Source: Symbiodinium natans (lineage: Eukaryota > Sar > Dinophyceae > Suessiales > Symbiodiniaceae). From it: a stretch of DNA of 64,000 nt. The stretch is from the NCBI GenBank assembly GCA_905221605.1, contig CAJNDS010002141.1, positions 380,878-444,877 on the forward strand, given 5' to 3'. Shown here piece after piece: positions 974 through 57,663 of this stretch. Numbering within the stretch: position 1 is the stretch's first letter; each line of letters starts with the position of its first letter. The notes under the pieces are model-generated. The model was not told the origin of the DNA, searched no databases, and was given only the letters and a program-made list of their open reading frames with translations. The position numbers and the translations under genes are program-made.

Positions 974-1039
974 GTCTCGCGGCTGGCTCCGGATGTCGTT
1001 CGGCGGTTGGCCAAGACTTTCAACACTGAGCGCGCCGAG
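974..1039 (+). CDS. Exon-like island, possible 5' part of ankyrin-type gene
   Basis: Sixty-six bases (22 codons, no stop) lie between CCAG and GTCCGC. They read VSRLAPDVVRRLAKTFNTER followed by AE, an ordinary amphipathic protein sequence in GC-rich codons. CCCTAAA-type repeat lies upstream and TTTAGGG-type repeat downstream, the same arrangement seen around the better-supported exons. Assignment to the same gene as the downstream ankyrin exons is inference from strand and order only. Confidence 0.6.
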
Positions 1040-1256
1040 GTCCGCCCCCTTGCCCTCTCACGGGGCTTTAGGGGTGCGGGTTTGGGGTTTAGGGTTTAGG
1101 GTTCAGGGTTTAGGGTCTAGGGTAGGCTTTAGGGCTCAGGGGGTTTAGGGGGTGTACTCGGTGGAATATGCTATAGTTCCCAAAGTTTGCTCTAAGACGA
1201 TCATATCTACGAATATTTTTCAAAGGGCGTTAAAGGCTGTCCTATTTTAGGGGTTC

Positions 1257-1359
1257 GGGTCCATGTACCTAAATAAGGTATACTTGGGCCTTAAAGTACT
1301 TGCTTTCTTTTTAAATGGACTTTGATCTCCAAGTATATAATCATGAGGTACATGGACCC
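1257..1359. mobile_element. MITE-like element, 14-bp perfect TIR (family 4)
   Basis: GGGTCCATGTACCT at 1257-1270 is the exact inverted complement of AGGTACATGGACCC at 1346-1359, giving a 103-bp non-coding element. A second copy lies at 48027-48165. It sits in telomere-like repeat and encodes nothing. Confidence 0.65.
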
Positions 1360-1437
1360 GTAGGGTTAGGTTTCAGGATTGCGGCTGCTGAGATCGTTGG
1401 GCTCGGGTGCTTAAGGTTGACACAGAGTTGTGCTATC

Positions 1438-1495
1438 GTTTAGGGTTTAGGGTTTAGGGTTTAGGGTTTAGGGTTTAGGGTTTAGGGTTTAGGGT
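1438..1495. repeat. TTTAGGG tract
   Basis: Eight near-perfect tandem TTTAGGG heptamers. It is interstitial: non-repetitive sequence and candidate exons lie on both sides. Confidence 0.95.
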
Positions 1496-1499
1496 CGTA

Positions 1500-2039
1500 C
1501 CCCTTGGTCCTCCCGCCCCTCTTACACATCCCCCGAGTCAAATAAAAAACAACCCTAGTCAACCCTGAAAAGACCCTGCAATCTAGGGCTTTAACACCCC
1601 GAATAGGGGGTTTTTGGGGTTCTTCTAATATAACTTTCTTTGGGGGGACCATCAGGGAAGAATATTAGTAGTTTTTCCGACCCCTATATTGCATCATTTT
1701 TGAAGCTGACGAAGCTGCCCAGATCACCCAGAGGCCCAAAGCCATGGCACAAATCTCTGCACCTAAAACCCAGACCAATCCACGTCCAAAACGTAAACCC
1801 TAAACCCAGAACCCCCAAGCCCGAAGCCCCAAGCCCAGACCTGCACCTCATGGCTTTCTGCGCTTTGTGCCAACAAAAGCATAGCCCCTAAACCCTGGAA
1901 CCGTAAGGGTTTAGGGTTTGGGGGCTCGGGTTTAGGGTTTAGGGTTTAGGGCTAGGGTTTAGGGTTTAGGGTTTAGGACCCTAAAACCCCAAAAGCCTTA
2001 AACCCTTCAGCCCCAAACCCACAAAAATCAGACCCGCAA
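1500..2039. other. Degenerate telomere-like repeat, no gene seen
   Basis: Mixed TTTAGGG and CCCTAAA fragments with short unique pieces. An open frame at 1640-1891 is mostly translated repeat (PKP-rich) and is not supported as a gene. Confidence 0.5.
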
Positions 2040-2155
2040 AAGCGAAAACCTAAACCCTAAACCCTAAACCCTAAACCCTAAACCCTAAACCCTAAACCCT
2101 AAACCCTAAACCCTAAACCCTAAACCCTAAACCCTAAACCCTAAACCCTAAACCT
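2040..2155. repeat. CCCTAAA tract
   Basis: About sixteen nearly perfect CCCTAAA heptamers, in the opposite orientation to the tract at 1438. Opposite orientations close together argue against a chromosome end. Confidence 0.95.
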
Positions 2156-2362
2156 CTGCAGCTCATGGCCCAGAGCTGTGAGTAGACCGAAGTCCCTGGG
2201 GCCCTGGGACCGGCCCGCTCCTTGCGGCCGTCGCGACCGGGCCATGCCGGGGACTTAGAAGACCGCAGGAACACTGCAAAGGGATCTTATTTTTTGTTTT
2301 CTTTTCGGGGTTCTTTGGGGTTCAGGTTTTAGGGTATAGCGTTTGAGATTTGTCTTTTGAAG

Positions 2363-2540
2363 GTCGCCAACGCCCTCGCTTCGCCTTGCCCGGGATCTGG
2401 TGCTCCTATTTCGTGCGCTAGCTACCGTATAGGTGGGTCGGCGTGGCAGACGGTCGGTCTCGTGTCACGTCTTCCTCATAAGTCGGTTGGCGTGTCTTCT
2501 CGAGCATGTGCCGACTCGCGCGCGTACTCACTGTCAGCAG
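2363..2540 (+). CDS. Possible exon, weak
   Basis: An island free of telomere-like repeat follows a TTTTGAAG acceptor-like site and stays open for about 59 codons, starting VANALASPCPGSGAP. It ends near GTCAGCAG just before TTTAGGG-type repeat. Composition is compatible with coding, but it is Ser/Ala/Gly-rich and matches no family I recognise, so it may be chance. Confidence 0.3.
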
Positions 2541-3493: not shown

Positions 3494-4410
3494 CAAAGTC
3501 GCAACGCGTCTGAACTCCGCCGCAACTCCGCCGCTGAACCGCTAAACCTAAACCCCAAACCCTGCTGGAAACTTCATGCATGGTAAGGTTCATGGGTTTA
3601 GGGTTTAAGGCCCTTCCCCCACTCCTTTGTTGCAGCCAATCAATTCATCACTTATGCCCCTCCCCCCTCCCAGATAAGACTACGTACCCATCTAGGGTTT
3701 AGGGCTTAGGGTTTAGGGTTTAGGGTTTAGGGTTTAGTGTTTATGAATGCCGTCAGCGGAAGCATCCGAGGCCTCTTCGCGTGCTAGATCAAAGATCCGT
3801 TGAGGCTGCGACTGGGTGCAGAGCTACGTTCTTGCTCCCTAAACTATGAGCCACTCGGCTCCATACCTACGACACAAAATACACCTTATTGGGTTTAACG
3901 GTTTAGGGTTTGGGGCTCGGGGTTTAGGGCGTAGGACCCAGAGCAGGCAGTTGTTCCATTTTTGGGGTTTTGGGTTCCCTTTTCAGCCTCTTGTAAACCC
4001 AAATAAAAGGGCACCGTTTGTGCTTCTAGTACTCTTGGGTTTAGATACACACCCAAGACTTCTACAACATGGCCTGAGACCCCAAACACCCTAATTCCAA
4101 AGCACCTGCCCTTGGTGTGGGTGTTGTGAGAATTCCAGGACGGGCTATTGGGCCCTATAATCCCCAGAATCAACCCTATAAAGGGCCTTTTTAAGGGGTT
4201 ATAAGGTATAATTGCCCGTCCTGTTTGTCGTGGTGGTGATATTCATCATGAACCTTCACACTCATTATCGTAAGCATAGTCTTCATACATTGTGAACCCT
4301 TAGACCTTCAAATCCTGAAACCCTGAAGCCCTAACCCCGAACCCTGAAACCCTGAAACTTGAAACCCTGAGACCCTAAACCCTGCAACCCCAAAACCCCA
4401 ACACCTCGAG
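3388..4410. other. Repeat-rich stretch between candidate exons
   Basis: Contains a 25-30 nt C run (about 3464-3492), TTTAGGG tracts near 3693-3735, a family-1 element at 3931-4044 and CCCTGAA-type degenerate repeat at 4310-4400. No further exon could be supported. Confidence 0.5.
3931..4044. mobile_element. Family-1 MITE-like copy
   Basis: Left end GTAGGACCCAGAGCAG and right end CTAGTACTCTTGGGTTTAG are imperfect inverted repeats. The interior shares the lines GGGTTCCCTT and AAAGGGCACC with the copies at 7228, 31181, 41219, 41858, 45768 and 51380. Confidence 0.6.
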
Positions 4411-4506
4411 CAAGTGCTGTTTTGGGCAGCAGCGCAGGGGTACTTCCCAACCAACAAGAAGTTCGCGGAAGTGCTGCGCGAAAGACCGGAGATGGACCCG
4501 TGCCGG
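4411..4506 (+). CDS. Ankyrin-type exon
   Basis: Thirty-two codons without stop lie between CTCGAG and GTTTCTTG. The translation begins QVLFWAAAQGYFPTNKKF and continues AEVLRERPEMDP, close to an ankyrin repeat (LxxAAxxG helix then a second helix). CCCTAAA-like repeat ends just upstream, and a long TTTAGGG tract starts 14 bp after the donor. Confidence 0.7.
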
Positions 4507-4621: not shown

Positions 4622-5205
4622 TGTCCGTGGCCCCCTCCAAATGTCTGGTGATTGTTTCGGCAGTTGTTTGTCTCCAGGGGTTATGCCCTGCAGCCTAGAG
4701 CCCTGCTCCCTAAGCCCTCAGACATCCTCCTGAATCCCTCTTAGAGTTTCGGATCTGGGGTTTGGGGCTTTGGGTTTCTGAACCTGAACCCAACAGACAT
4801 GGGCACAAAGGACTGCTGGAAGGAGGGTGTCGGGGTATGTTTGGGTTATCGGGTGCCTAGCAAAGATCGTGTGGATTTTCGTCCTCAAAGCCCTCCTTAC
4901 CCTTCGGCTCAAAATGTATCCATTCTTCCTACTAAACTTGGCACTATCTACATGCGTGCTTCCAGAAACTTCCTCCTTCATGAAGACTCGATTTAGGGGA
5001 TGCAGGGTCTCAGGATGGGTTTTTAGGGTGGCCGGGCCTTGAGGACCCCCGAGGGCTCAAAAAAACCCAAAGCCAAAACGTTTCATGTATTCAGCGGTTC
5101 AGGGCGCCAATCATGGCGGCGTGCCCTCCCAAACCTACCAATACCGCCCCATAGCCCTGCACCCACAACGTAGGGTTTGGTGCAGGACCTGTACTACCTT
5201 TGCAG

Positions 5206-5259
5206 CATCGGCAAGAGCCGGTGTCTTATTGGGCGGCTGGGGGTTCACCCAAGCATGAG
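5206..5259 (+). CDS. Ankyrin-type exon with GC donor
   Basis: Eighteen codons after TTTGCAG: HRQEPVSYWAAGGSPKHE. The YWAAGG core matches the first ankyrin helix. The next bases are GCTTGC, so the donor would be GC rather than GT, an accepted dinoflagellate variant. Confidence 0.6.
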
Positions 5260-6174: not shown

Positions 6175-6209
6175 GAAATGTAGGGATCCTGTCGCCTAGG
6201 TCACTCCAG

Positions 6210-6258
6210 GTTAGAGAAGTGCTTGAAGAGCCAGGTTGACGTCAACAAGCCCAATGAG
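6210..6258 (+). CDS. Ankyrin-like exon
   Basis: After CTCCAG the open frame reads LEKCLKSQVDVNKPNE, with SQVDVNKPN like the ankyrin loop (SGADVNxxN). An alternative acceptor is CCTAG at 6199. The bases after GAG are GCCTTC, a possible GC donor, and CCCTAAA repeat follows at once. Confidence 0.55.
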
Positions 6259-7044: not shown

Positions 7045-7116
7045 ATGGGTGCCACAGCCGTGATGTTCGCCGCGCGTGCGTGGCAGGGAGCCAAGACTTT
7101 GCCGAGAGAACCCATA
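7045..7116 (+). CDS. Ankyrin-repeat exon
   Basis: Twenty-four codons after TGTGCCAG, starting MGATAVMFAARAWQGAKTL. GATAVMFAA matches the core ankyrin motif GxTPLHxAA. GTCTAGG follows as donor and then TTTAGGG repeat. The ATG is probably internal, not a start. Confidence 0.65.
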
Positions 7117-7577: not shown

Positions 7578-7637
7578 GTCCCCCTCTTTCGTGGAGCGGC
7601 TTATCGAAGCGAAGGCCGATGTGAATGCCGAGGCAAA
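7578..7637 (+). CDS. Ankyrin-repeat exon
   Basis: The frame reads SPSFVERLIEAKADVNAE then ANRAL, and GTGAGGGTTTAGGG follows as a near-consensus donor merging into the repeat. VERLIEAKADVNA is a textbook second ankyrin helix plus loop. The acceptor is CCGAG, with CCCTAAA repeat just upstream. A second frame is also open, but the ankyrin frame is much more protein-like. Confidence 0.7.
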
Positions 7638-8232: not shown

Positions 8233-8280
8233 GACCGCTATGGCGCCACTGCGCTAGACATGGTCAACGATGACGTGCGA
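8233..8280 (+). CDS. Ankyrin-repeat exon
   Basis: Sixteen codons after CTGTAG: DRYGATALDMVNDDVR, followed by GTATTCG. RYGATALDMV matches the ankyrin consensus xGxTALDxA. It begins and ends in phase 0 and can join the next island at 8650. Confidence 0.65.
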
Positions 8281-8649
8281 GTATTCGAGGAGGGGCCAGG
8301 GCGAGTGGCCCAAAGCTGCCAAGCCCTAAACCCTAAACTCGACAAACCCTAAACCCTAAACCCTAGACCCTAGACCCTAAGCCCCGCATTGAGGGTTCAG
8401 AAGGCCTAGGGTTGATAAATACATGATAAGGGCTCAAGCGTGATAAGCTTGTGTGGGAGCCGGGGAGATCCAGAACCAGACAAGGACTTATGCCCGCGCA
8501 CCCTGAGGTTTAGGATTCGGGGTTTAGGGTTTGGGGCTTAGGGTTCAGGATTTTGGGGGTTTAGGGTCGGGGGTTGAGGGTTCGGGATCAGGGTTTGGGG
8601 TTCGGGGTGGCCCCTAAACATGAATCCGTCGTCTCTGAATATGGCGCAG

Positions 8650-8703
8650 GACCAGAAGCGCTTCGAGCAAGCGGATTGCAGAAGGAACGCCTGCAGCGAC
8701 TGG
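8650..8703 (+). CDS. Short exon
   Basis: Eighteen codons after GGCGCAG: DQKRFEQADCRRNACSDW, ending at GTTTTGGGG. It is in phase with the exon at 8233. No domain recognised. Confidence 0.5.
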
Positions 8704-9437: not shown

Positions 9438-10059
9438 ACCCTAAACCCTAAAACCCTAATCCCTACACCCTATATCCTGAAACCCTAAACTTACCCTAAA
9501 CCCTCAACCTGGCAAAGGCGGCGGCTGGCCATGGAGGTTTCCGGTCAGATCTTGTTTGACAGGCGCACGGGCTGTGGGGTGCTTTTAGCTGGGGTTTAGC
9601 TGGTGAAGGGGTCTAGTGTAAATATGAAGACTAATTTAATTACTGAAAGAACTTTGAATATTACTCATCGTCATCGCCATCATCATATCACACTATTTAC
9701 TCGTAGGTATGGGTCTACATGTAGGTGTGAAACGGAGTATTCTCCTTGATGCCGGTGATCGCTCGAAGAGTTTTATGTTACGCAGCATAGCGGCTCAAAG
9801 ATTTCAATCTGCTTTCGCACTCAATACCCTGAACCCTGAACACTAAACCCTAAACCCGAAACCCTGAACCCTGAACCCTAGATCCTACAGTAGTTGGGGT
9901 AGAAAACCTTCAATCTGACGCGTGTTGGGGACAAAGCCCGCGGCCCACATCGCAGGCCGAATGTGGAGGAGCTGGAGCCCTTCTCCGCCTCTCGACTTGG
10001 GGTTTGCGCTAAGCTGCCTTGCCCGCGTTGGTTTCAATAGTGGGTTCCCGTGCGTGCTC

Positions 10060-10510
10060 GGCGCGTAAAAGCGTAAAAGCGTAAATTTCGAAATTTCGTT
10101 TTTACCGTTTTACCGTCCGCGCTTCCTGCATCCTCAGTTTTGATCTACATGAACGTGTAAAAGCGTAACGGCGTAAAAGTGTAAAAGCGTAAATTTCGAA
10201 ATTTCGTTTTTACCGTTTTACCGTCTGCGCTTCCTGCATCCTAAGTTTTCCGCCGCGCGAGTCCAGCGTAACAGCGTAAAAGCGTAAAAGCGTAAATTTC
10301 GAAATTTCGTTTTTACCGTTTTACCGCCTGCGCTTCCTCCATCCTCAGTTTTCCGCCGCGCGCGTAAAAGCGTAAAAGCGTAAATTTCGAAATTTCGTTT
10401 TTACCATTTTACCACCTGCGCTTTCTGCATCCTCGGTTTTCGGCCGCGCGCGTCCAGCGTCAAAGCGTCAACGCATAAAACGTGCAAGCGTAAACTTGGA
10501 AATTTCGTTT
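10060..10510. repeat. Palindromic repeat array 1
   Basis: Five units spaced about 88-110 bp share the perfect palindrome AAATTTCGAAATTT (at about 10083, 10190, 10294, 10382 and a degraded one near 10492), flanked by GCGTAAAAGCGT and TTTTTACCGTTTTACC. The flanks extend the palindrome to about 40 bp. Between units lies GC-rich TGCGCTTCCTGCATCCTCAG. A matching array lies at 26995-27365. Confidence 0.85.
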
Positions 10511-11206
10511 TTGCTTTTTTACACTTTCCGTTGCGCGGGTTAAAGCGTACCATGCGATATTCCCTCCATCATGCGCCAGCTGCCGATGTGGTGCTAAGTG
10601 TTTGGGAGATCTGCACTGCAGAAATAGACTTCCAACGTGCTGCAAAGAGCTGGCTGGCGAGTGCGCTGCGGCTGGTCTACACCAGAATGTGCCTGGCTGA
10701 TAGAGCAGGCGCTTCTGTTTGATTCTGTTTTGCAGCCAAGCCAACCAAGAACAGCATATCAACTCTATCCCGCCTGCCTATAACTACCTACCGCTATCTA
10801 CCTAAAGTCAGCAACTACCCTAGAGAGGGAACCCTCAACTTTTCAGAGACAAATGAGTTGAGAGGCTGAAGAGGAAAGAGCTTGGGGTTGTAAGCTTTTT
10901 GGGTGCTTCCTGTGTTTCGCAGGGGAGGCCACGGGGGAGAAAAAAACATATAGAAAATCTGTATAAATACATATATATATATATACAGATTACATAACCA
11001 GGATATAGCAACAAACATACGATTGATTTGATATACTTATTGATTTGAAGTCATAGACGTTCCACCCTGCCGGCCGGTTCTCGACGCCTAGAGAAACCCG
11101 AGACCTTGATCCCCTGTAACCCTAAACCCTAAGCCCCAAACCCTAAACCCTAAATATCCTCCTTAAATCCTGGCCCCTAAGTTCTGAAACAAAAGTTGCT
11201 TGCAAG

Positions 11207-11280
11207 ATCAGTGGTTCCTCTGTGGAGCAGCTGGGCATAGACGATGCGCGGGTCGGAGCCGTGGATCTTCCTGTGCTGCT
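11207..11280 (+). CDS. Exon-like island
   Basis: After TTGCAAG the frame reads ISGSSVEQLGIDDARVGAV then DLPVLLELP, with no stop. The 3' end is uncertain: the frame stays open to about 11330 and candidate donors are not clear. It belongs to the same strand series as the ankyrin exons. Confidence 0.5.
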
Positions 11281-11610
11281 GGAATTGCCCATAGAGCCCA
11301 AGACCCCTCAATTAAGCCATAGACTTTAAAGTATTACCGGGATCCTTAGTATGACTTCAGGGAACGTTCTCTGGTTAAGGGCTCTCGGCCTCCCCTCTCG
11401 AAGGTTCTTTGGGGGCTACAGTTTGGGGAGCGGGGTTTTTTGCGGCACGAAGCCCTAGCCCCCAAACCCTACACTCGAAATCCCGAAGCCCTAAGCTCTG
11501 CAAATAGCCCTTCTTTGAGATTCACGATTCTTTTCGCCCAGTTACAGCTGTACTCATAACCCACCTCGAAACCCTGGCCCTAACATGGTTAACATTGGGT
11601 TCTCGGTACT

Positions 11611-11652
11611 GTTATAATTGGCTTGGTAAGTACCATGAACATCCAAGTGCAC
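11611..11652. mobile_element. Partial family-3 element
   Basis: GTTATAATTGGCTTGGTAAG and TACCATGAACATCCAAGTG match the right terminal repeat of the element at 42405-42559. The left half is missing. Confidence 0.5.
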
Positions 11653-11707
11653 CCTAAACCCCGCTCTGTAAGAGGGTAGGAACCTAAACTCTAAACCAAG
11701 CCTTCAG

Positions 11708-11757
11708 GTGACTACGCCTTGGCTGCTATGGGCCAGTGGACTACGTACACCAGCGAG
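11708..11757 (+). CDS. Exon-like island
   Basis: Fifty bases between CCTTCAG and GTCCAGGGTTTAGGG. They read DYALAAMGQWTTYTSE. Short but clean, with the telomere-like repeat starting 5 bp after the donor. Confidence 0.55.
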
Positions 11758-12029
11758 GTCCAGGGTTTAGGGTTTAGGGTAAGCTCTTCCATCGGGATTC
11801 TCAAGATGCTTCGGGCAGCGAACGGGCAGCCGTCACTGTCGCCGCCAGTGTCTCTCTCGCATAATCCACATATTCTCATAAATTGATTCGAGACCGAGCT
11901 GACAACAAACAGCTACTAAATGTGAGTACTTCTTTGACGCTTCTTGCCTTCATGGAGTCCCGCTCATGTGAACATGGGGGATGTTACTTTCTGCCGGTCA
12001 AGACTTGCTTTGCACGCCCGCGCGATTGG

Positions 12030-12870
12030 ACCTTCTCCACTTCTGGAGCCAATGCTGGCAAGTTACTTCGAAAACATCTTGCGCTGCATGAGAAGCATGC
12101 CAGTCAGCGAGATCAGCTGTCAGCCGTAGCCGAGCGAACAACTCGTTTAGAAAACGGTTTTCGCTGCCGGTGTGGTCGAGAAGGAAGCATTGGCGTCATG
12201 TGCCATCATGTTTGCTCGACAGCCAGGGGAGCTGGCGGCCGCCTTTTGAAGAGAGCACGTGGAGAGTCGCCCGCCGTCTCTAGTAAGCCTGCTAAGCGTA
12301 GGCGGCGATGCGTGCAGGTCTTGGCCGTGACATCTCCCAGGGCTGCTGTCCCTGGCGGAGCCTTCCCCGAAGATTTGACCCAAGGTCCTTACGCGGAGCT
12401 TACTGACCAGTTTCAACGCCAAGATGCCGGCAGCGTCACAAGCTTCTTGCGTGCCATGAATGTGACCTGCATGCTGGCGCCTCCCTTGCCTGTGCCAAGC
12501 GCTGGCCTGGCGCCGGACGACAAGCCGCTGCGTGTGGCTTCGTGCATATTACGCACAAAACCTTTCTATACTTTCGCATTGCAAACAAACGCTTTCTTAC
12601 TACTAGCAACGACGTGCTTGCAACTGCCGCGCAGTCCAGGTTGGAGACTTCTGTATCTGGCCTGGTGCGCCTTCTGTGTACGCCTGCGTCACTGCTCTGA
12701 CGGAGGACTCCGTCCAGGCGATGCGGTTTGCCCCGTATCCCACGTCCGGTCCTTGTACTTGCCCCGGCCACGCCAAGTCAGGGCGCTGCTGGCGTGCCAA
12801 GCCAGACCAGCCGAAAACCTTGCCACGTCAGGGTCTCCAGCGTGCGGTTCCTCTGTTGCCACGGCAGAGC
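12030..12870 (+). CDS. 5' exons of transposase-like gene, unknown domain
   Basis: A long open region without telomere-like repeat. The frame around 12040-12560 reads a basic, Arg-rich segment with an NLS-like KPAKRRRR and Cys/His groups (FRCRCGREGSIGVMCHH). Another frame (12676-12870) reads CTCPGHAKSGRCW, so an intron or frame change lies between about 12560 and 12680. A donor at GTGGGTTGTTT (about 12876) precedes the intron leading to 13071. No true start codon could be fixed. The function is inferred only from the following exons. Confidence 0.4.
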
Positions 12871-12875
12871 TCAGG

Positions 12876-13070
12876 TGGGTTGTTTTTGCTATTGGGAGGG
12901 CACACGGAAGATGTCACTGTCCTTTAGGACGCCTCTGTAGAAGTGCCCTGAACCCAGGGCTTGCTTTAGGGTTCCCAAAGCTGTAGAGAAACCACACATG
13001 TAGCCCTACCTACTAAGAGGGGGCCTGGGAAACAACGTATGCGCCGCAGGCAAGCCTGCGCCCATCCACA
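12876..13070. other. Intron with sequence shared with 21370-21600
   Basis: It runs from GTGGGTTG to ATCCACAG. AAACCACACATGTAGCCC and ATGCGCCGCAGGCAAGCC recur with few changes at about 21380 and 21552. The shared block suggests a mobile or duplicated intron sequence. Confidence 0.5.
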
Positions 13071-14080
13071 GCTGCTGCTATGGGATCGTCTCGGACGACG
13101 TTGCTTTTACAGCTCCACTATCAACCGAAGATTCTGCCGCCGCACGCATGCTGCTCCCGGGTGCAGGTGGTGGTCCTAACACGGACAGCCATGATGCAAA
13201 TAACCCAGATCTGCCGCCGAACGCCCTCCGGCTACTGAACGACCTCATCACAATGCCCGTCTCCTTCGATGCCATGCCAACAGCTTGTCCACATCGTGAC
13301 GATGCTACTCCATGTTGCGTGGTAGCGCATGGCACTTACACCGGTCCTCGTGTGCTCACAGCCTCCGGCGTGTATCGCGCGCGTGTGCAGCGCGTGCGTT
13401 GCAAAACACACGGCGCTGTCTGGACGCCGTTGCGCGCCAATCACGTGTCCACCCGCTCCTGCACGGGAGACATCCTGCACGGTTGCATTCTTGACGGCAA
13501 CTACTGGCCCCGTGCTTTTCGCTTGTGGCAGGACACTGAAGACATGCTTGTCCTGGAGCGAGATCTCCGAGATGCTACTGCTGACAGGCTCTGCGTTTCT
13601 CTGGCCAGGCATTCTCTCCGTCCCAGCTTGAGCGCCGTGGCGCAAGCAACGCTTGTGCAAGCCTTAACGCAGTTCCTCCTTGAAACCCCTACGCGGCAGT
13701 TGCTCAAGGAAATACTTTGCGACTACATGACTTCTGCTGTGGCGCCCCGTGTTCATGCTCTGGCGCAGCCTCTAGTCGCTACCCAGGGAGCCTTACTCAA
13801 CATGGACTTCAGCGCTTGCGATGCCCGACAGCTGCGACCCCGGCGCCGACGACGAGCCTTGGGCGAGACGCGCCCGCGACAAACTTTTGGGGGGGTTACT
13901 GGCTTGGACGATTGCTTGCTCCTGCCACCACTTCTCACCAGTGGAGAAGACGGAACTACCAAGCATCGCCTACTGCAAGAATGCATGCAGCGCCTTGGTT
14001 TTTTTGATCCGTCGGGTTTCTGCGCACACGTCTCTCACTTCCTTTCTAGAAGTTCTCGTTCTCAACCTTTCTTTCCCTGG
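13071..14080 (+). CDS. Candidate DDE transposase, N-terminal exon
   Basis: Open frame from the CCACAG acceptor. It has a zinc-binding-like segment (CPHRDDATPCC, later VRCKTHGAVW), then a helical region, then ALLNMDFSACDA, which resembles the first RNase-H strand carrying a catalytic Asp, and a Cys after GFFDPSG. The frame stops at 14081, probably inside an intron whose donor lies near 14018-14050. A KDZ-type or other DDE transposase is possible; the family match is from pattern memory and weak. There is no telomere-like repeat here. Confidence 0.45.
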
Positions 14081-14214
14081 TAGCACTAGCAAGGCCAACC
14101 CCCTTCCACTTTGTTTTTTTGAAAACTCCCCCCCGACAAGTCTGATGACAAATGCACGGTTCCAGAGGCAGCACCCTCAACACGGAAACCCGTCCAGGAT
14201 GCTGGCAGCCGCAG

Positions 14215-14770
14215 GCAAGCGCCCCGTCGGCGTCAATGTAGATGACATCGAGAAAAGTTTCAACACCGTGGCCCATTGTCTGGAGACATGTTTCCCTGGA
14301 TGCGTGAGGCACATTGATGCGGACTGCGCTGAGCAAGACCTGCCAGCGTGGGCGTGCACACACATCCGCGCTGGCGGAATTGTCATAAACCTCAAAGCTC
14401 GCGCCGCTTGGGGAATAGAAATTGGAGAGGACCCCCTCCACGTCTACAAGCGGCTTCTGGAATCTCTTGACTTCCGCAGTCGTGAAGCTGCTTTTGCAGC
14501 CAGATGCTTGCAGGCTCTCCTGTCATCCACTAACCCAGCCAACCGTCATTGCGCCGACAGGCGCGACGAGAACGTCGGAGCCACGCGTGCCAGGCCGCGT
14601 AGTGACTTGTGGGTTCACTTCGACGCTTGGGAGTCGCGGAGGCCGCCGGCAGTGGCAGACATTCTGCGCTCCTACTTCCAAGGATTTTCCTTCCCTCACA
14701 ATGCTGCCACAGTCCTTGCGCAGGGCATGGACCAAGACTGGGCCCATCCCACCTCTGGGAAGTTGCGCGG
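14215..14770 (+). CDS. Candidate DDE transposase, middle exon
   Basis: After GCCGCAG the frame reads KRPVGVNVDDIEKSFN and includes CVRHIDADCAEQDL and GEDPLHVYKRLLESL. These could carry the second catalytic Asp and its following D..H motif. It ends near a GC-rich stretch at 14765. The following piece (14790-14935) contains a CA microsatellite and reads as intron although no stop interrupts it. Confidence 0.4.
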
Positions 14771-14832
14771 CGCCTGTCCATGTCTTTGGTGGAGGGGTTT
14801 GGGGTTTAGGCTCCATGCAGGGACACACGTCC

Positions 14833-14851
14833 ACACACACACACAGACACG
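14833..14851. repeat. CA microsatellite in intron
   Basis: ACACACACACACAGACAC between coding-like segments, consistent with intron sequence. Confidence 0.7.
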
Positions 14852-14936
14852 CATACACCCACAGTTCGCTTCTCCTATTGATTGTGTTACTATATTCCTG
14901 TGTGTTAACACTTTCCTACATTGTCCAGTCACGCCA

Positions 14937-15665
14937 AGGTTGCTGCCGCGTTGTGCCAAAGCGGTCGTGTACCGAGATGTGGCCTTAGCGGGCCGCTGCA
15001 GTAAGCGCGACGTGCGGCTCCTACTTGCGCAGCACCTGTATCCCGATGCCTTGAGCACCCACGAGTTCCAGAAGGAGCTGTCTCTCTTGTCCGACCTCCT
15101 CAGCCAAGTACTTTTCCAGGAAGCGCGAGCGTCCGGTAGCGGCCTTTGGTACAAGCAGCAGCTGGCTTACCTCAAACATGTGCGCCAGCGTCCCATCTTC
15201 AGTCGGGACGGCGCCGTTCAGCAGGCGTCGGTCAAGCCCGGATCTCTGGCCGCGCCCGCTGGAGGCAGCTCATTCCAGCACGCTTGTCGACTGCAGTCCC
15301 GCACATTCATTGCGCGTGGAGTGGTGGCTGCGTACCGCAGCAAGCTGTGGGCAATCCAGGCGGGTCGTCGGGTATCCCTCGGGACGGTGGGGACCGAGCG
15401 TGCGTGGCGCAACCTGCAACGCTCCAGTCGCAACAAGACACGCACTGTGTCGGATGCCCGGACCCGTCAGCTGCTCTCGCTGACTCGGTGGCTGCGCGAG
15501 GCTCAGGGTCGGCTCATGGCAAAATCCCAGGTGTCGCATCTAGGCAACGATGCCAGAGGAAACATGCAGTTGCTTCTGCACACTGAAAGGTTCGCTGCCA
15601 GTATGATCCACGGAAGTGCAACAGATGCCCACCTGCATAGCATTAGTTCAACCAATCCCGCCTAA
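14937..15665 (+). CDS. Candidate DDE transposase, C-terminal exon
   Basis: After ACGCCAAG the frame reads LLPRCAKAVVYRDVALAG, continues open, and ends at TAA 15663-15665. SLGTVGTERAWRNLQRSSRN could supply the catalytic Glu (E followed by W and a basic helix), as in many DDE enzymes. Spacing to the previous Asp is long and contains a helical region. The triad is a hypothesis; no family is claimed. Confidence 0.45.
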   Translation, partial: RLLPRCAKAVVYRDVALAGRCSKRDVRLLLAQHLYPDALSTHEFQKELSLLSDLLSQVLFQEARASGSGLWYKQQLAYLKHVRQRPIFSRDGAVQQASVKPGSLAAPAGGSSFQHACRLQSRTFIARGVVAAYRSKLWAIQAGRRVSLGTVGTERAWRNLQRSSRNKTRTVSDARTRQLLSLTRWLREAQGRLMAKSQVSHLGNDARGNMQLLLHTERFAASMIHGSATDAHLHSISSTNPA

Positions 15666-15954
15666 CGCGAGTGATGCTGCGCGGTGACCAAAACATGCAC
15701 CTGCTCCGGTTGCTCTTCCTCGCTGCCGCAGTACTGCAGACGCAGCTCAGGGTTGAATCAAGGCACGCCCGGCCCTCTATCCCACAACAGCACTTCTCGG
15801 AGAAGTGCAACTGAAACTGTCGGGCCCATGGCTGCTGTGCAAACAGTGACCGCTCTGCCTCAAAACGAGAAACACACTGGAAGTAAGCACAGCCGCTTCA
15901 AAACCTCAGCGCTCAGGGTTCAAACCAGACTCGAGAAGAGTTTCCAAGCACACA

Positions 15955-18097: not shown

Positions 18098-18384
18098 TGA
18101 GGTTAGCTCAAGCCTCTGCTGCCAAGAGTTTTGGGGTTCTGCCATCAATCATTGACAGCTCGTGAAGGGTCCACTTGCACGTGTCTCCTGTGTCACCTCT
18201 GTGGCTTGCTGCCGTTGCACGTGTCTTCCCGGAGATGCCGGAACTCGAAAGCTGTCATCCTCAGTCCAAAGCAGTGGCAGACATTTTCAGGGTTTTCCAG
18301 TTCTCCAGACATGCGTGCCTCACAACCAAATGACTCATAAAGCGGTAACGCAGACTTTTTACACTTCTTCTGCTACCTGTCCCC

Positions 18385-19860: not shown

Positions 19861-19930
19861 TTAAGTCTGTATATCTAGTACGCCCCAAGGCCTCCTGCCT
19901 TTCTTTCTTTCCGGACCTATGCCAAGCAAG

Positions 19931-20043: not shown

Positions 20044-20084
20044 CCTAAGGAACCCCTTCATACTCACTCACGCCTGCCTTTCAG

Positions 20085-20188: not shown

Positions 20189-20289
20189 CACGCATGCCTT
20201 GCATTAAACCTGTGTGGTCAGCTGCGACACATGAACCGTGCTCCTGGGTATGTGCCTGCTCTTGTACACGTGCCTTTTCCTTAGCCCAG

Positions 20290-26785: not shown

Positions 26786-26843
26786 CCCTAAACCCTAAAC
26801 CCTAAACCCTAAACCCTGACAGTTGGGAGGCCAAGGGTTGCAG

Positions 26844-39527: not shown

Positions 39528-39589
39528 ATGCCATTCGGCGGGGCCATGTCGTCAAACGGCAAACACGGCCCTGAGCAGATGGGTCTCTG
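39528..39589 (+). CDS. Exon, possible start Met
   Basis: After CCTACAG it reads MPFGGAMSSNGKHGPEQMGL and ends at GTGAGCC. The leading ATG could be a gene start directly after a trans-splice acceptor, or be internal. Confidence 0.55.
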
Positions 39590-40586: not shown

Positions 40587-41420
40587 CCGCCCGGGACACA
40601 GTGTGCTGATGCTAAGGGTGCATTGCGTCTATTCTGCGGGTGCGTTGCGTCTATTCTGCGGGTGTTTCCTTTGTAAAGTATTTGTTTACAAGGCACGCAC
40701 GTGCAGCATAGCCTTTAAGTGTCCATCTTACCCCCCACACCCCCCCCCCCCCCCCCCCCCCCCCAAAACACTAGCAAAAGAGAGACTTTTTTTGCATACC
40801 CAAAACCTTACCCCCAACCCCCCCCCCCACCCCCCACAAACCCCATAAACCCTACCTAAACCCTGTTTTAGAAGCTTCCCCGAACAACACGCACGGGCCC
40901 TGCAAGGTACTGCCGTGCCTGCATCACCGGGGCTCCTGCCTTGGATGGCTCTCCTGGCCTGTTTTTTTGTCACAGGGTTTAGGGTTTAGGGTTTGGGGTT
41001 TAGGGTTTAGGGTTTGGGGTTGAGGGTTTCGGGTTCAGGGTTCAGGGTTTAGAGGGTTTCCTCAGAAGACTAACAAATGTCTGCTTCTGCCTGCTATCAT
41101 TCGCATTCCTGTCGTTCTCCATCGCCAGTACCATGGTGCTATTGTTTGTGGGTGCTAGTTCTTTACTAAGCAGAATGCTTATATGCCATTCGGATGATGA
41201 GCAGTTGTGTTCAGTACTCTAGGACCCTTATTCCCTTTTTTGGGTTTAGGTTTCTTATAAGCCACTTAAAATCAACAAGGGCATCCTTTTTATTCCCAGG
41301 TTAGTCCTGGGTCTAGCCCTAAACCCTAAACCCTAAACCCTAAACCCTAAACCCTAAACCCTAAACTCTTGCACTTAGTAATGGTTTAAGGCTATGCGCC
41401 CCTGCTTCTTTGTTTGCCAG
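40587..41420. other. No gene seen
   Basis: A 22-bp direct duplication (GCGTCTATTCTGCGGGTG, 40624-40665), poly-C at 40741-40764 and TTTAGGG at 40977-41060. Family-1 copy at 41219-41316. Confidence 0.5.
41219..41316. mobile_element. Family-1 MITE-like copy
   Basis: Left end CTAGGACCCTTATTCCC, right end TTAGTCCTGGGTCTAG, with the shared interior TCTTATAAGCC and AAGGGCATCC. Confidence 0.6.
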
Positions 41421-41470
41421 CCGACGGCGTGGACGCCTCCGCCACCATAGAGAAGAGCACTGGCGAGAAG
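41421..41470 (+). CDS. Exon
   Basis: After TTTGCCAG it reads DGVDASATIEKSTGEK and ends at GTCCGACATG. It can join the exon at 42583 in phase 0. A second frame is also open. Confidence 0.6.
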
Positions 41471-42582: not shown

Positions 42583-42637
42583 GCAATCAACTCTACGTGG
42601 ATCCTCGGGTCCCTGGCCCAGGCACCGCCGAAACTAG
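42583..42637 (+). CDS. Exon with GT donor
   Basis: After CTCGTCAG it reads AINSTWILGSLAQAPPKL and ends in phase 1 at GTAGTGTT. It joins the exon ending at 41470 in phase 0. It starts just 23 bp after the family-3 element. Confidence 0.65.
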
Positions 42638-43786: not shown

Positions 43787-43869
43787 GCCCTCCAGTTCCC
43801 CCTGGAGACATACCGGCCGATTCCTGCCTGGGCTGAGGCTGGCGGGGTGCTTTTCCCAATGGGTCGAGG
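43787..43869 (+). CDS. Exon with GTTTAGG donor
   Basis: After CACGAGAG it reads ALQFPLETYRPIPAWAEAG then GVLFPMGR, ending in phase 2 at GTTTAGG. A strongly protein-like sequence, with a CCCTAAA tract immediately upstream. Confidence 0.7.
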
Positions 43870-45123
43870 GTTTAGGTTTGGGGTTTAGGGTTTCGGGTTT
43901 CGGGTTTCGGGTTTAGGATATAGCGTTTTAGGGGTATATAGGATTTGGGGTTTTGGGGGCCTCTGAGCAGTGCCTATATGTTTCTGGTAGCTGAGCGGTA
44001 CCCTTGGCTATGCTGTGGATGTCAGTTTTCACCAAGACTAAGTGCTTATGCGCCCGCGTTATGCGTAATCGACCCCCCCCCCCCCCTAACCCTAAACCCT
44101 GAACCCTGAACCCTGAACCCTAAACCCTAAACCCTAAACCCAACCACAGGGGGGGGGGGATTGCGCCTATGCTGGCACACTTAGGGGATAAGGTAGCGCC
44201 TGTTTTGGGCCCGAGGCGATTTGCTCAAAAGCTTTTGGGAGTATCTGTGGGCGGAGGAGCGTTTGATAGTCGATACGTCTGCCTGGGAATCTAAGGATAG
44301 TTTCATGGGCCCCTAGTATGGTCCCTCACCTCCTTTAAAGGCTTCTGATGTATTGGCCTTTCGTTTACATAAGGTATACAAGGTCTAATTATCAGGGGGT
44401 CCCCTTTGAAGGGCCCATATGAAGGGACCATGCAACGACCCCCAGAGGGAAGCAGAACTCCACCTTCCTCTGCCGGCGTCTGTTGGCGGTGTCAGTACGC
44501 AGTACCCCCCTCCCCCCTCCCCAAAGTGACCGACCAGATGCAATATTTAGGGTTTAGGGTTTAGGGTTTAGGGTTTAGGGTTTAGGGTTTAGGGTTTAGG
44601 GTTTCAAGAGTCACCAATCCTGCTGTTTTGTGGCCACTGGGTTACCAAGTTACGGTGCAGGGTATAGGGTACAGATTGTACAAGCCCCATTACACCCTTG
44701 TTTGCTGCGAGCCAAAGGGTTTGGGCTTTAGGGGGTTAAGTTTAGGGATTAGGGACCCGATTTGGGTTTAGGAGCGGCCAAGGTCTAGCAGTACATATGT
44801 TCACGCTCCCACCCCTCTCTCTAACCCTAAACCCGAAACCCTAAACCCTAAACCCTAAACCGCTGAGAGTGAAGCCGTGTCAGGAGAACAGCCCCGACGA
44901 GCTGAGACAGGTCAAGGCCCGAATTCATTCGGGGCCGTGCTCAGGGCTTGTGAAGCGCGTTCTGTGTTGGTTTTTGAAGGTAGGGTACCCCTAAACCCTA
45001 AACCCTAAACCCTAAACCCTAAACCCTAAACCCTAAACCCTAAACCCTAAACCCTAAACCGGGTCCTTTTTAAAAGGCCCCCTATGTTCGTAAACTCCCA
45101 TATGGCGTATCGATGTTGATGGA

Positions 45124-45906: not shown

Positions 45907-46002
45907 TTCTGGAGATGTATGTGAGACAAATGAAGGCAGAGGTCATCGCAGCAGAGAAAGCGCGGGAGAATGCTCCGTGCCACGGTTGCATTGCGCGGAG
46001 TG
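45907..46002 (+). CDS. Exon ending at GTTTAGGG
   Basis: After CCCCAAG the frame reads LEMYVRQMKAEVIAAEKAR then ENAPCHGCIARS and ends in phase 1 at GTTTAGGGTTTAGGG. It is charged and helical with a CHGC motif. It joins the island at 46439 in phase. Confidence 0.75.
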
Positions 46003-46438
46003 GTTTAGGGTTTAGGGTTTAGGGTTTAGGGTTTAGGGTTTAGGGTTATAAAATCCCCAGGCATGTCTTGCAAATGGCATCCTCTGTGTTTACTAGTACA
46101 TGGGCCGGGGCGCCGCATCTAGGGGTCGGAATAATTTTTCTAACAGTATTCCTTTCTGGTCCCCCCAAAAAAATCGGGCCCCTATATTTGCTCAACACAT
46201 GCATGTTCCTATTGTTCTTAGAGATAGTCACTTATGCACCTGTTAAGCAAAGAAGGAAACCCCTTTGTCCTAAACCCAATATGGCTTAGTGTAGAAAGCC
46301 TATACAACAATCTCATGAAAAAAAAGAGCAGCCCCAAAATCTTAGGGTTTAGGGTTTAGGGTTTAGGCTTTAGGGTTTAGGGTTTAGGGTTTAGGGCCCC
46401 AAAATCGTCCATTTGTACTCCCTGATTGTTGAATGCAG

Positions 46439-46837: not shown

Positions 46838-46894
46838 CGCATCATCAGGAAAAGCATCTCCTCCGCAACAGTGGGCAACATCACGCACATGGCG
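46838..46894 (+). CDS. Exon-like island
   Basis: The frame reads RIIRKSISSATVGNITHMAG, preceded by a CCCTAAA tract and followed by a G-run. Borders are approximate (a GC donor after GGCGG is possible). Confidence 0.5.
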
Positions 46895-47444: not shown

Positions 47445-47790
47445 CCTAAACCCTAAACCCTAAACCCTAAACCCTGAACCCTAAACCCTAAACCCTAAAC
47501 CCTAAACCCTAAACCCTAAACCCTAAACCCTAAACCCTAAACCCTAAACCCTAAACCCTAAACCCTAAACCCTAAACCCTAAACCCTAAACCCTAAACCC
47601 TACAACCTAAACCCTAAACCCTAAACCCTAAACCCTAAACCCTAAACCCTAAACCCTAAACCCTAAACCCTAAACCCTAAACCCTAAACCCTAAACCCTA
47701 AACCCTAAACCCTAAACCCTAAACCCTAAACCCTAAACCCTAAACCCTAACCCTAAACCCTAAACCCTAAAACCCTAAACCCTAGACCCT
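47445..47790. repeat. Long CCCTAAA array
   Basis: About 345 bp of nearly pure CCCTAAA with only a few variants (CCCTGAA, CCTACAA, CCCTAA). One of the two longest pure tracts in the window, immediately upstream of the exon at 47801. Confidence 0.97.
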
Positions 47791-47800: not shown

Positions 47801-47900
47801 AATGCCAGGAGAAGAGGGTACAGCTGCCCTCCAACATCACGAACATGCCGGTGACACAAAGCCTGGAGGCGACGAGACGCAGCGGCGCCTTCTCCTTAGG
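47801..47900 (+). CDS. Exon ending at GTTTAGGG
   Basis: After ACCCTCAG the frame reads CQEKRVQLPSNITNMPVTQ then SLEATRRSGAFSL and ends at TTAGG|GTTTAGGG. Clean open reading and the same repeat arrangement as other exons. Confidence 0.65.
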
Positions 47901-49173: not shown

Positions 49174-49228
49174 GATCTCGACCTCTTCTACAGCGAGGCC
49201 CCTCCCAGCCGTGGACGCGGACACGCGG
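49174..49228 (+). CDS. Exon with GTTAGGG donor
   Basis: After CACGCAG it reads DLDLFYSEAPPSRGRGHA and ends in phase 1 at GTTAGGGTTG. It joins 49784 with a completed Gly codon. Confidence 0.7.
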
Positions 49229-50856: not shown

Positions 50857-50928
50857 GCTCCGGCGCCGGCCGCGCCGGCTCGGGCACAGCCCGCCGCGCT
50901 CGGGCGCCCAGCTTCCGAAGTCATGAGG
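50857..50928 (+). CDS. Ala/Pro-rich exon
   Basis: After GGGACAG it reads APAPAAPARAQPAALGRPAS then EVMR and ends at GTTCAGGG. Twenty-four codons, phase 0, very GC-rich; a disordered linker. Confidence 0.6.
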
Positions 50929-52292: not shown

Positions 52293-52356
52293 CTGAAGGC
52301 CTCCAGCGCCAGCATCGGCCAGCTTGGAGCAGGCAAAGCCCCGAGCGGACTCCTAA
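52293..52356 (+). CDS. Exon-like island
   Basis: After CTTTCAG it reads LKASSASIGQLGAGKAPS then GLL, open to a TAA at 52368-52370. A GC donor inside (after GGAGCAG) is possible. Confidence 0.55.
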
Positions 52357-54273: not shown

Positions 54274-54375
54274 GCTGAGGATGACGATGACGACGACTGG
54301 AAGTACTGCCAGCAGGCAGCTCCGCCAAAGCCTGCTGAGCCAGCTCCTGGGACTTCGTGGAAGAGGGCTTCTTAG
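54274..54375 (+). CDS. Acidic exon with stop
   Basis: After CTGCCAG the frame reads AEDDDDDDWKYCQQAAPPK then PAEPAPGTSWKRAS and TAG at 54373-54375. The acidic start continues the acidic end of 53631-53711. The stop overlaps the start of TTTAGGG repeat, so it could instead lie beyond a GC donor. Another frame is open too. Confidence 0.6.
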   Translation, partial: AEDDDDDDWKYCQQAAPPKPAEPAPGTSWKRAS

Positions 54376-56259: not shown

Positions 56260-56403
56260 GTGGGCGGCGCCACGAGCGGAGCAGCCGCACCCGCCGCAAC
56301 CGGGCCAACCGCAAGCGGAGCACCCCCAAGTGCTGGGGGAGCGATGACCCCTGAGGACCTCCATGGATTCCAGCATGGCCAGAGATACCCTGACTCTACT
56401 TAG
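56260..56403 (+). CDS. Ala/Gly-rich exon
   Basis: After TTCGAAG it reads VGGATSGAAAPAATGPTAS and then AMTPEDLHGFQHGQRYPDST, ending at TAG 56401-56403 followed by GTAGGG. A real terminus or a GA/GC donor upstream of the stop are both possible. Confidence 0.6.
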   Translation: MGGATSGAAAPAATGPTASGAPPSAGGAMTPEDLHGFQHGQRYPDST

Positions 56404-56619
56404 GGTAGGGTTCCGTTTGTGAACTTCTTTGAACGAAACAAGAACACCCCTTTCCCTTTCCTGGCTTACAGGGTTTCCTCTTGAAGGTGGTTGGGGGCTG
56501 ACAGCAGGTTGCATGCTGGAGAATCGGCGCTGGGCTTGCCTACTAGAGCCATTTGGGCACGATCAAAGAAACAAGGACCCCCGAACCCCAAAAAACACAT
56601 AAGGGTCAAGAAGCGAACA

Positions 56620-56725
56620 AATATATGTGTGTGTATAAATAAATAAATTATGTATATGTATATATGTATATATATATATATTTCTGATTATGTTTCTACT
56701 TACATGTCCATGTATGTATATAGTG
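56620..56725. other. AT-rich patch
   Basis: TATATGTATATATATATATAT-like sequence with an ATAAATAAAT run, similar to AT-rich patches at 8720, 30500 and 36730. No gene. Confidence 0.7.
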
Positions 56726-57241
56726 AGAGGGATCGACGTGTGAAGGTGTGTAGTAGGGCCCACAAACCAGAACTCGCGGGATGCGAGCATGTGTTCGTCC
56801 CCCAAGCGCCAGTAGACCCTAAACCCTGAGCTTTTTACATGGCTTCTACTCTGAAGCTCCAATTTTAGACTTGAAAATCCTCGCAAAACCCTCAACAAAT
56901 CTCCGCGAAGCTCCTAAAAACTCAGCCACAAACCCTGGACTACCCAGACCTTGAACTATGTAACAGGAAAGGCAGACGGGAATGAAAGACCACAACAAGA
57001 AGACGCAATCCGATACTATCCGACACAAGAACCAAAACATCACTTGAACCCCATGCCCGGAACAACCCTAAAGCCCTGACCCTCAACCGCCGAACCTTAA
57101 ACAATCTTAATTCTAAGCATGGGGGGAAGCCGCCTGAACACCGAACACCCGAATTCCACAACAAAAAACCGTAATACCCTAACTTTGCCTGAACACCCTT
57201 ACCATAAACCCTGATATATCGTCTACCGTTGCCCTAAACTC

Positions 57242-57411
57242 TTAGGGTCGTTGCATTACTTACAGTAACACGGTCCCGTAATATGGGGCCTTGAACTGGA
57301 AAGCCTTATACACCCCTAATGTTCCCCGCAAACCTCAAGGGCCATACTTCAGAACCCTTTGAAGAATTCACAGGACCATATTCAGGGACCATATAACTAC
57401 CCCTAGATCAG
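57242..57411. repeat. Dispersed repeat (family 7), copy
   Basis: CTTAGGGTCGTTGCATTAC left, GGGACCATATAACTACCCC right; GGGCCATACTTCAGAACCC is shared with 9316-9437. Confidence 0.55.
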
Positions 57412-57419
57412 ATTGACAG

Positions 57420-57479
57420 GAACAGTCAAAGCAGGAAGCAGACGAAACCGCGAAAGCTGCGCAAGCGAAGGCACGTTGG
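57420..57479 (+). CDS. Penultimate exon, charged helix
   Basis: Twenty codons after ATTGACAG: EQSKQEADETAKAAQAKARW, ending at GTGAACGG. Joining to 57595 in phase 0 makes an Ala/Glu/Lys helix typical of a coiled coil. Confidence 0.8.
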
Positions 57480-57594
57480 GTGAACGGTGTAGGGTTTAGG
57501 GTCCAGGGCCAAGAATCCTCGACCATAAGCCCTACTATGCTCATGTGCCTTCCAGCCTAAACCCTGAACCCTAAACCCTAAACCCTAACTGAAG
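57480..57594 (+). other. Model GT-AG intron with inverted telomere-like ends
   Basis: It starts GTGAACGGTGTAGGGTTTAG and ends CCCTAAACCCTAACTGAAG. The 5' end carries GTAGGGTTTAGGG and the 3' end CCCTAAACCCTAA, so the ends can pair as a hairpin. Splicing it joins two exons perfectly in phase. Confidence 0.75.
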
Positions 57595-57663
57595 GCCCTG
57601 GCCGAGAAGCAAGCTGCGGAGGCAGGTTCGCGGCTGGCGCGGTTTCAGTGTCTACTAGCGTAG
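57595..57663 (+). CDS. Last exon with stop
   Basis: After AACTGAAG it reads ALAEKQAAEAGSRLARFQ then CLLA and TAG at 57661-57663. Continues the charged helix. This ends the + strand gene; about 365 bp separate it from the retroelement reading frame. Confidence 0.75.
   Translation, partial: ALAEKQAAEAGSRLARFQCLLA

What the first reader, a model, noticed from the sequence alone, without database searches (positions are those of the whole stretch)
974..57663. Telomere-type repeats form the introns of real genes
Short GC-rich islands with open frames, AG on the left and GT or GC on the right, occur throughout the TTTAGGG/CCCTAAA-rich DNA and all lie on the + strand. Several pairs join exactly in phase (6466 to 6583, 25530 to 26844, 35320 to 36247, 36316 to 37070, 46002 to 46439, 49228 to 49784, 57479 to 57595). 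The repeat mass is therefore mainly intronic, not terminal. Introns built from telomere-like repeat on this scale are, to my knowledge, not a described arrangement.
Basis: partly seen in the sequence, partly recalled or inferred. Interest (0 to 1): 0.9.

Follow-up and report, generated by a model that had tools for sequence, protein, structure and literature searches.

The report
Telomere repeats fill algal gene introns
In this dinoflagellate-type genome the repeat that normally caps chromosome ends sits inside the introns of ordinary genes, mostly pointing outward from the exons at about 30 bases from the splice sites, an arrangement I did not find described.

Summary
The window (contig C1829 of a 759-Mb genome) carries two + strand genes whose exons are islands in TTTAGGG/CCCTAAA DNA: an AP-3 beta subunit gene and, inside one of its introns, a 13-exon ankyrin gene that reads gap-free against a transcript-derived protein. 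A gene on contig C1 gives the same picture with 24 exons.

Of 50 mapped introns, 45 hold arrays. TTTAGGG:CCCTAAA units are 244:41 within 200 nt of donors and 52:191 within 200 nt of acceptors. Outermost arrays so oriented lie a median 31 nt from the splice site. The two ends of an intron are oriented independently (Fisher p=1.0), which argues against one unit element. The repeat is genome-wide (1.7 million overlapping 28-mer matches, backward control 31). Whether telomerase-type insertion, splicing constraint or both made the polarity is not settled. Splicing itself is inferred from homologs; no transcript of this organism was available.

The parts
970..1039 (+). AP-3 beta exon (QVSRLAPDVVRRLAKTFNTERAE)
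   Evidence: tblastn P0007 E 1.1e-5, found with 5 of 8 queries; junction to 33376 (P0001)
33376..33408 (+). AP-3 beta exon (VKQQILVLALK)
33738..33776 (+). AP-3 beta exon (VWAFHSLNAKGEV); 3' end not fixed
37518..37574 (+). AP-3 beta exon core (VDHIFDLASTTLVDVRDSA); boundaries not fixed, not used in intron counts
39528..39589 (+). AP-3 beta exon (..GPEQMGLW); start uncertain
40907..40947 (+). AP-3 beta exon (YCRACITGAPALD, 13 of 13 as P0004)
41421..41470 (+). AP-3 beta exon
42583..42621 (+). AP-3 beta exon
43787..43837 (+). AP-3 beta exon
44884..44916 (+). AP-3 beta exon (ENSPDELRQVK)
45936..45976 (+). AP-3 beta exon (AEVIAAEKARENAP)
46849..46891 (+). AP-3 beta exon (KSISSATVGNITHM)
47809..47868 (+). 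AP-3 beta exon (EKRVQLPSNITNMPVTQSLE)
49174..49197 (+). AP-3 beta exon (DLDLFYSE); 3' end uncertain (49197 or 49207)
50857..50897 (+). AP-3 beta exon, low complexity; 3' end uncertain
52299..52332 (+). AP-3 beta exon (PPAPASASLEQ); start uncertain
   Evidence: P0004
53631..53711 (+). AP-3 beta exon (VRLGAPTAPAGPVGTAVFGEDDESDEE)
   Evidence: tblastn E 1.5e-10
54274..54350 (+). AP-3 beta exon (AEDDDDDDWKYCQQAAP..); 3' end uncertain
3771..3804 (+). ankyrin gene exon 1 of those found (PLRVLDQRSVE); start codon not located
   Evidence: aligner start 3772
4438..4494 (+). ankyrin gene exon 2
5186..5216 (+). ankyrin gene exon 3
6200..6258 (+). ankyrin gene exon 4
7045..7082 (+). ankyrin gene exon 5
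7578..7632 (+). ankyrin gene exon 6
8233..8289 (+). ankyrin gene exon 7
8650..8684 (+). ankyrin gene exon 8
9518..9562 (+). ankyrin gene exon 9
   Evidence: anchors were out of frame for its 3' end
9956..9986 (+). ankyrin gene exon 10
28535..28564 (+). ankyrin gene exon 11
29699..29721 (+). ankyrin gene exon 12
31017..31053 (+). ankyrin gene exon 13 with stop codon
1040..33375 (+). AP-3 beta intron of 32,336 nt that contains the whole mapped ankyrin gene
9987..28534 (+). ankyrin-gene intron of 18,548 nt with long open frames and a satellite on each side
47479..47771 (+). example of CCCTAAA arrays just upstream of an exon (47809)
46004..46045 (+). example of a TTTAGGG array just downstream of an exon (45976)

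Best explanation
Supported by homology: these are ordinary spliced genes whose introns carry telomere-type arrays. The splice signals stay in an array-free shell of about 31 nt at each end (together a median 68 nt where both outermost arrays have the usual orientation). The outermost arrays mostly run outward from the exon: TTTAGGG after the donor, CCCTAAA before the acceptor. Inferred: ancestral introns were short; breaks inside them were repaired with telomerase-type addition of TTTAGGG to free 3' ends. A 3' end leaving the upstream exon gains TTTAGGG on the sense strand; the facing end gains it on the other strand and reads CCCTAAA. Other DNA, including foldback sequences, was caught between. 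Such insertions persist because splicing removes them, and are purged from exons and from the splice-signal shell. Confidence that these are spliced introns holding telomere-type arrays is about 0.97; the number given here is for the insertion mechanism as the main cause of the polarity.
For: Collinear, in-phase exons of three genes. No exact telomere 7-mer in 1,350 exon bases against 23.6% of 22,679 bases in 25 short window introns. Polarity 244:41 near donors and 52:191 near acceptors (sign-flip p 0.0002 and 0.0016). Median distance 31 nt at either end for arrays in the usual orientation against 72 and 68 nt for the others; array-free ends sum to 68 nt, IQR 52-86, in 21 introns. The unit is the telomere unit reported for dinoflagellates (PMC11453091 passages). 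Insertion of telomere repeats at break repair is reported for mammals (PMC7215372 passages), and a telomerase model for plant telo boxes in open chromatin (PMC3022908 passages).
Against: No empty orthologous site was seen and no telomerase RNA scar was looked for. If one repair event made both arrays, the two ends should be linked; they are not (21, 11, 9, 4; Fisher p=1.0), so ends must gain arrays separately. 13 of 45 first arrays and 15 of 45 last arrays have the other orientation. Introns average several arrays, so many events are needed (170 arrays of 10 nt or more in 25 introns). For the C1 gene alone the acceptor-side bias is not significant (34:54, p 0.21).
Confidence: 0.45

Rival explanations
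1. Splicing constraint made the polarity. Arrays arise in either orientation, but near the acceptor CCCTAAA is kept (C/T-rich, no AG, CTAAA resembles a branch site), whereas TTTAGGG there would offer false TTTAG acceptors; near the donor TTTAGGG gives G-runs that may help weak GC donors.
For: CTAAA is 10.7 times denser in the last 65 nt than in intron middles, and AG density falls from 0.067 over whole introns to 0.032 just before the acceptor (42 introns). Each end follows its own rule independently. Few units lie within 15 nt of a splice site.
Against: In 15 of 45 introns the last array is TTTAGGG, for example just before 54274, so false acceptors are tolerated. The CTAAA enrichment is largely the arrays themselves. 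No branch point was mapped. CCCTAAA-exon-TTTAGGG equals its reverse complement, so the data cannot tell an RNA rule from a DNA rule.
Confidence: 0.35
2. Each intron is an introner-like mobile element whose terminal inverted repeats are telomere-type arrays, or a hairpin that brings the splice sites together.
For: Most introns fold more stably than shuffles (16 of 23 at z of -4 or lower, only 8 shuffles each); local foldbacks such as 42408-42443 with 42521-42556; introners with inverted repeats are reported in Amoebophrya (PMC7789003 passages).
Against: Orientation at one end does not predict the other (Fisher p=1.0). Repeat-masked self-comparison of the window shows few sequences shared between introns. 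Direct repeats at the boundaries do not exceed shuffled pairs.
Confidence: 0.1
3. Neutral microsatellite growth with no polarity beyond chance.
For: Many degenerate and variant units next to exact arrays; Polarella glacialis carries (TTG)n over 18-19% of its genome (PMC7245778 passages).
Against: Polarity and distance to splice sites; model-free test repeated in two loci not used before (p 0.005).
Confidence: 0.08
4. A chromosome end, subtelomere or assembly artefact.
For: The repeat is the telomere unit.
Against: The window lies inside a 640,285-base contig and has no N; exons of three genes on two contigs run through the repeats in order; genome-wide counts. The long intron and the nesting could still hide a local misjoin; the DNA upstream of the window has N runs.
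Confidence: 0.02

Closest known systems
Short interstitial telomeric sequences of mammals (PMC7215372, abstract and passages seen)
   Same: Telomere units at internal sites, some in introns, attributed to break repair with telomerase
   Different: There few and, by that paper, compatible with random insertion in introns (31% of human ones); here millions of overlapping matches, in 45 of 50 mapped introns, with polarity and set distance to splice sites
Plant telo boxes (PMC3022908, abstract and passages seen)
   Same: Telomere-unit motifs in genes
   Different: Mostly single units near 5' UTRs and not enriched in introns; here arrays inside introns
Introners of Amoebophrya and other dinoflagellates (PMC7789003 and PMC11453091 passages; Roy et al. 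2023 seen only as cited there)
   Same: Dinoflagellate introns with repeats and non-GT donors
   Different: No linked inverted ends, no boundary direct repeats in excess, few shared families in the window
(TTG)n-rich genome of Polarella glacialis (PMC7245778 passages)
   Same: A simple repeat taking a large share of a dinoflagellate genome
   Different: Other unit; no splice-site polarity in the passages seen
(TTTAGGG)n telomeres of dinoflagellates (PMC11453091 and PMC6395649 passages)
   Same: Same unit
   Different: In Karenia, FISH signals at interstitial sites were rarely seen; here short arrays are spread through genes

Membership tests
Interstitial telomeric sequences | Telomere-type tandem units at internal sites | tested here: met
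   172 arrays in the window, 64 kb inside a 640-kb contig
Interstitial telomeric sequences | Unit identical to this organism's own chromosome-end repeat | not tested
   Contig ends were not examined; TTTAGGG is reported for dinoflagellates
Interstitial telomeric sequences | Empty orthologous site in a relative | not testable with these tools
   No eukaryotic relative's genomic DNA was at hand
Spliceosomal introns of dinoflagellates | Exons join in phase to a homologous protein over several junctions | tested here: met
   Ankyrin gene gap-free over 176 residues and 13 exons; AP-3 beta; C1 gene, 327 of 371 columns identical. GT/GC/GA donors and AG acceptors were imposed by the aligner
Spliceosomal introns of dinoflagellates | Spliced transcripts of the same organism | not testable with these tools
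   Only proteins of other organisms were available
Introner elements | Sequence family shared among introns | tested here: not met
   Within the window only; not tested genome-wide
Introner elements | Linked terminal inverted repeats and boundary direct repeats | tested here: not met
   Fisher p=1.0; direct repeats like shuffled pairs
Chromosome-end telomere or subtelomere | At a chromosome or contig end | tested here: not met
AP-3 complex beta subunit | Closest named solved relative is AP-3 beta | tested here: met
   Tested on homolog P0005: AP-3 beta 3e-39, AP-2 beta 2.9e-22 (one unnamed yeast chain at 1.4e-22 between)
Ankyrin-repeat protein | Pfam ankyrin model over its cut-off | tested here: met
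   Tested on homolog P0009: Ank_5 27.8 bits, cut-off 27

The most novel reading that the evidence does not exclude
Telomere repeats are a working part of gene structure in this lineage: the seven bases that cap chromosomes have been laid down outward from the exons in most introns, and TTTAGGG after weak GC donors and CCCTAAA before acceptors now help define the splice sites, so that telomerase, or reverse-transcribed telomere RNA, acts as an intron-growing agent genome-wide.
Probability: 0.25. Interest if true: 0.92.

Novelty: new variant of a known kind. Interest (0 to 1): 0.78.

Why it matters
Interstitial telomere repeats are usually read as rare scars. A genome in which introns are rich in them, with polarity and a set distance to splice sites, gives many natural tests of two open questions: how telomere repeats enter chromosome interiors, and how dinoflagellates define introns whose donors are mostly GC. 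It also warns annotators that masking this repeat, or calling such regions subtelomeric, could cut real genes apart.

Tried and rejected
Codon-usage exon finders over-predicted and did not separate the strands; set aside. Hand-picked islands were partly wrong: for example the 6346-6466, 6583-6637, 25446-25530, 32513-32582 and 49784-50027 islands are not exons of the mapped genes. Element, hairpin and fusion models were considered and weakened. Exons as capped units: flanks of the same exon are near independence too (C|T 19, T|C 4, C|C 8, T|T 7).

Dropped before counting: AP-3 beta introns between 33776 and 39528 and after 54350 (boundaries not fixed), and the first aligned segment of the C1 gene (1016-1063 of L044, doubtful). 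The two longest introns were left out of the 25-intron counts but kept in the 50-intron counts. Two of the 25 short introns were not folded. In one search five AP-3 beta junctions and one ankyrin junction came out wrong because my anchors were out of frame; I set them by hand and the aligner gave the same places. The aligner also forced small, doubtful exons outside the shared ones; these were not used.

Weaker replicates: in L040 the first array is TTTAGGG in 11 of 12 introns with arrays, but the last is CCCTAAA in only 5 of 12, combined p 0.06; C1 gene acceptor side 34:54, p 0.21; ankyrin gene donor side p 0.09; model-free test not significant in L045 alone (p 0.37) or L048 alone (p 0.08). 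Whole-genome searches with PF00225 and P0005 did not complete. No structure was predicted.
Full report
WHERE. The window is bases 380878-444877 of contig C1829 of a 759-Mb assembly in 2,543 contigs; the contig is 640,285 bases long. Named homologs are from dinoflagellates (Polarella glacialis, Cladocopium goreaui, Symbiodinium sp. CCMP2456), so it is very probably a dinoflagellate near the Symbiodiniaceae (inference).

REPEATS. Exact 7-mers of TTTAGGG or CCCTAAA cover 14.4% of the window (0.44% in one shuffle) and are almost absent from 12-20 kb and 58-64 kb. In the whole genome (TTTAGGG)4 has 853,942 forward and 852,709 reverse overlapping matches, against 21 and 10 for the pattern read backwards: 2.25 per kb, against 4.11 per kb in the window. 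If arrays elsewhere have the window's lengths, about 35 Mb, near 5% of the genome, would be exact arrays of 14 nt or more; this is my rough extrapolation. Six loci were picked without regard to repeats, by chaperonin hits or arbitrary numbers: two are rich (L047 3.9 and L048 5.6 per kb; L048 is on the window's own contig), one poor (L039 0.71), three have none (L038, L041, L049). The feature is widespread but not uniform.

GENES IN THE WINDOW. Islands of the + strand between 32.5 and 50.0 kb, joined by hand, hit eight proteins, the best at 1.9e-17. tblastn placed short matches of these proteins in order along the + strand, among low-complexity matches on both strands. Homolog P0005 is closest to AP-3 beta among solved structures. 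Islands between 4.4 and 32.6 kb hit two 177-aa MMETSP proteins with ankyrin repeats at 1.3e-21 and 3.3e-20. A spliced aligner that I wrote, which allows only GT/GC/GA donors and AG acceptors, recovered 13 exons; the joined sequence aligns to residues 2-177 of P0009 without a gap and ends in a stop; by my count 163 of 176 residues are identical. For AP-3 beta, four homologs (one of them, P0004, cut to residues 241-500) scored 624-732 on the + strand and 145-253 on the reverse strand.

NESTING. All 13 ankyrin exons lie, on the same strand, inside an AP-3 beta intron of 32,336 nt between 1039 and 33376. The exon at 970-1039 carries this claim: it matches P0007 at E 1.1e-5, and P0001 uses it, while P0003 was aligned elsewhere. 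A further exon upstream of the window fits, but weakly (10 of 12 residues, E 0.23), and that DNA has N runs.

REPLICATE. L040 (C1:258001-268000) was chosen only because the pattern listing showed arrays there. Its hand-joined islands hit six proteins, the best P0011 at 5.7e-24. P0011 mapped to 16 exons in L040 (score 1040, reverse 96) and, with the neighbouring L044, to 25 segments over residues 3-371, 327 of 371 columns identical (score 1382, reverse 146). I used 24 of these.

INTRONS. 27 introns from the window and 23 from the C1 gene, 50 in all: donors GC 38, GA 7, GT 5. PMC11453091 gives 25-74% GC or GA donors for Symbiodiniaceae (passage). No exact telomere 7-mer lies in the 1,350 exon bases; 23.6% of the 22,679 bases of the 25 short window introns is such sequence, and 22 of these 25 hold 14 nt or more of exact array. 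45 of 50 introns hold an array of 10 nt or more.

POLARITY. Within 200 nt of donors TTTAGGG:CCCTAAA units are 244:41, within 200 nt of acceptors 52:191 (p 0.0002 and 0.0016 by flipping whole introns). The first array is TTTAGGG in 32 of 45 and the last CCCTAAA in 30 of 45 (binomial p 0.007 and 0.036); such arrays lie a median 31 nt from their splice site at either end, the others 72 and 68 nt. In the 21 introns with both, the array-free ends sum to a median of 68 nt (IQR 52-86). First arrays lie closer to the donor than uniform placement gives (35 vs 71 nt, p 0.002), and last arrays closer to the acceptor (41 nt, p 0.0075). Orientation at one end does not predict the other (21, 11, 9, 4; Fisher p=1.0). 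Without gene models, islands between CCCTAAA and TTTAGGG are richer in GC than islands between TTTAGGG and CCCTAAA: 0.568 vs 0.510, 51 and 51 islands in five loci including the window, p 7e-7 (in the three loci new to the test 0.563 vs 0.498, p 0.004), and 0.581 vs 0.521, 15 and 14 islands in two further loci, p 0.005. L045 and L048 alone are not significant.

READING. CCCTAAA-exon-TTTAGGG is how a telomere-capped linear chromosome reads: the G-rich strand points outward from each exon edge. The pattern equals its own reverse complement, so a DNA cause (telomerase-type addition at ends) and an RNA cause (splice-signal constraint) predict the same picture, and I cannot separate them here. The shell of about 68 nt suggests growth inside short ancestral introns. 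Independence of the ends argues against inverted-repeat elements and obligate hairpins, with limited power at 45 introns.

The central claim stands; the offered junctions do not: none of seven is a mapped one, four are contradicted and three lie where I could not test. Codon usage gave no clear strand.

LITERATURE. Nine searches of open-licence PMC and passages of ten papers showed no report of telomere-repeat introns in dinoflagellates. No paper was read whole. Subscription papers, among them Roy et al. 2023 on introners (seen only as cited), were not seen.

Noticed in passing
window 58041-63998 +: A long open frame (1,986 codons to the window's end) that I take by eye and recall for a copia-like retroelement (CCHC-like and LLDSGATH motifs); Pfam gave only a CCCH zinc finger below its cut-off. 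It lies just beyond the last telomere array.
   Followed up: partly
window 12-25 kb +: Long open frames (for example 13776-15662, 18349-19875, 23098-24573) in telomere-free DNA inside the 18.5-kb ankyrin-gene intron; the three given to Pfam had no match at E 0.01.
   Followed up: partly
window 10063-10536 and 27004-27369: Arrays of a unit of roughly 100 bp, 79-83% alike, on both sides of the 16-kb telomere-poor block; they may mark an inserted element.
   Followed up: no
window 16.0-18.1 kb: A tandem repeat of several hundred bases seen by eye, not measured.
   Followed up: no
window 42408-42443 with 42521-42556; relatives at 11606-11648, 52036-52076 and 52129-52174: A foldback sequence with relatives elsewhere in the window.
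   Followed up: partly
window 3771-31053 inside 1040-33375: A complete gene nested on the same strand in another gene's intron; how the two transcripts are kept apart is unexplained.
   Followed up: partly
L038 (C1992:31001-39000): A chaperonin (PF00118) gene in several exons with short gaps and almost no telomere units: not every gene has such introns.
   Followed up: no
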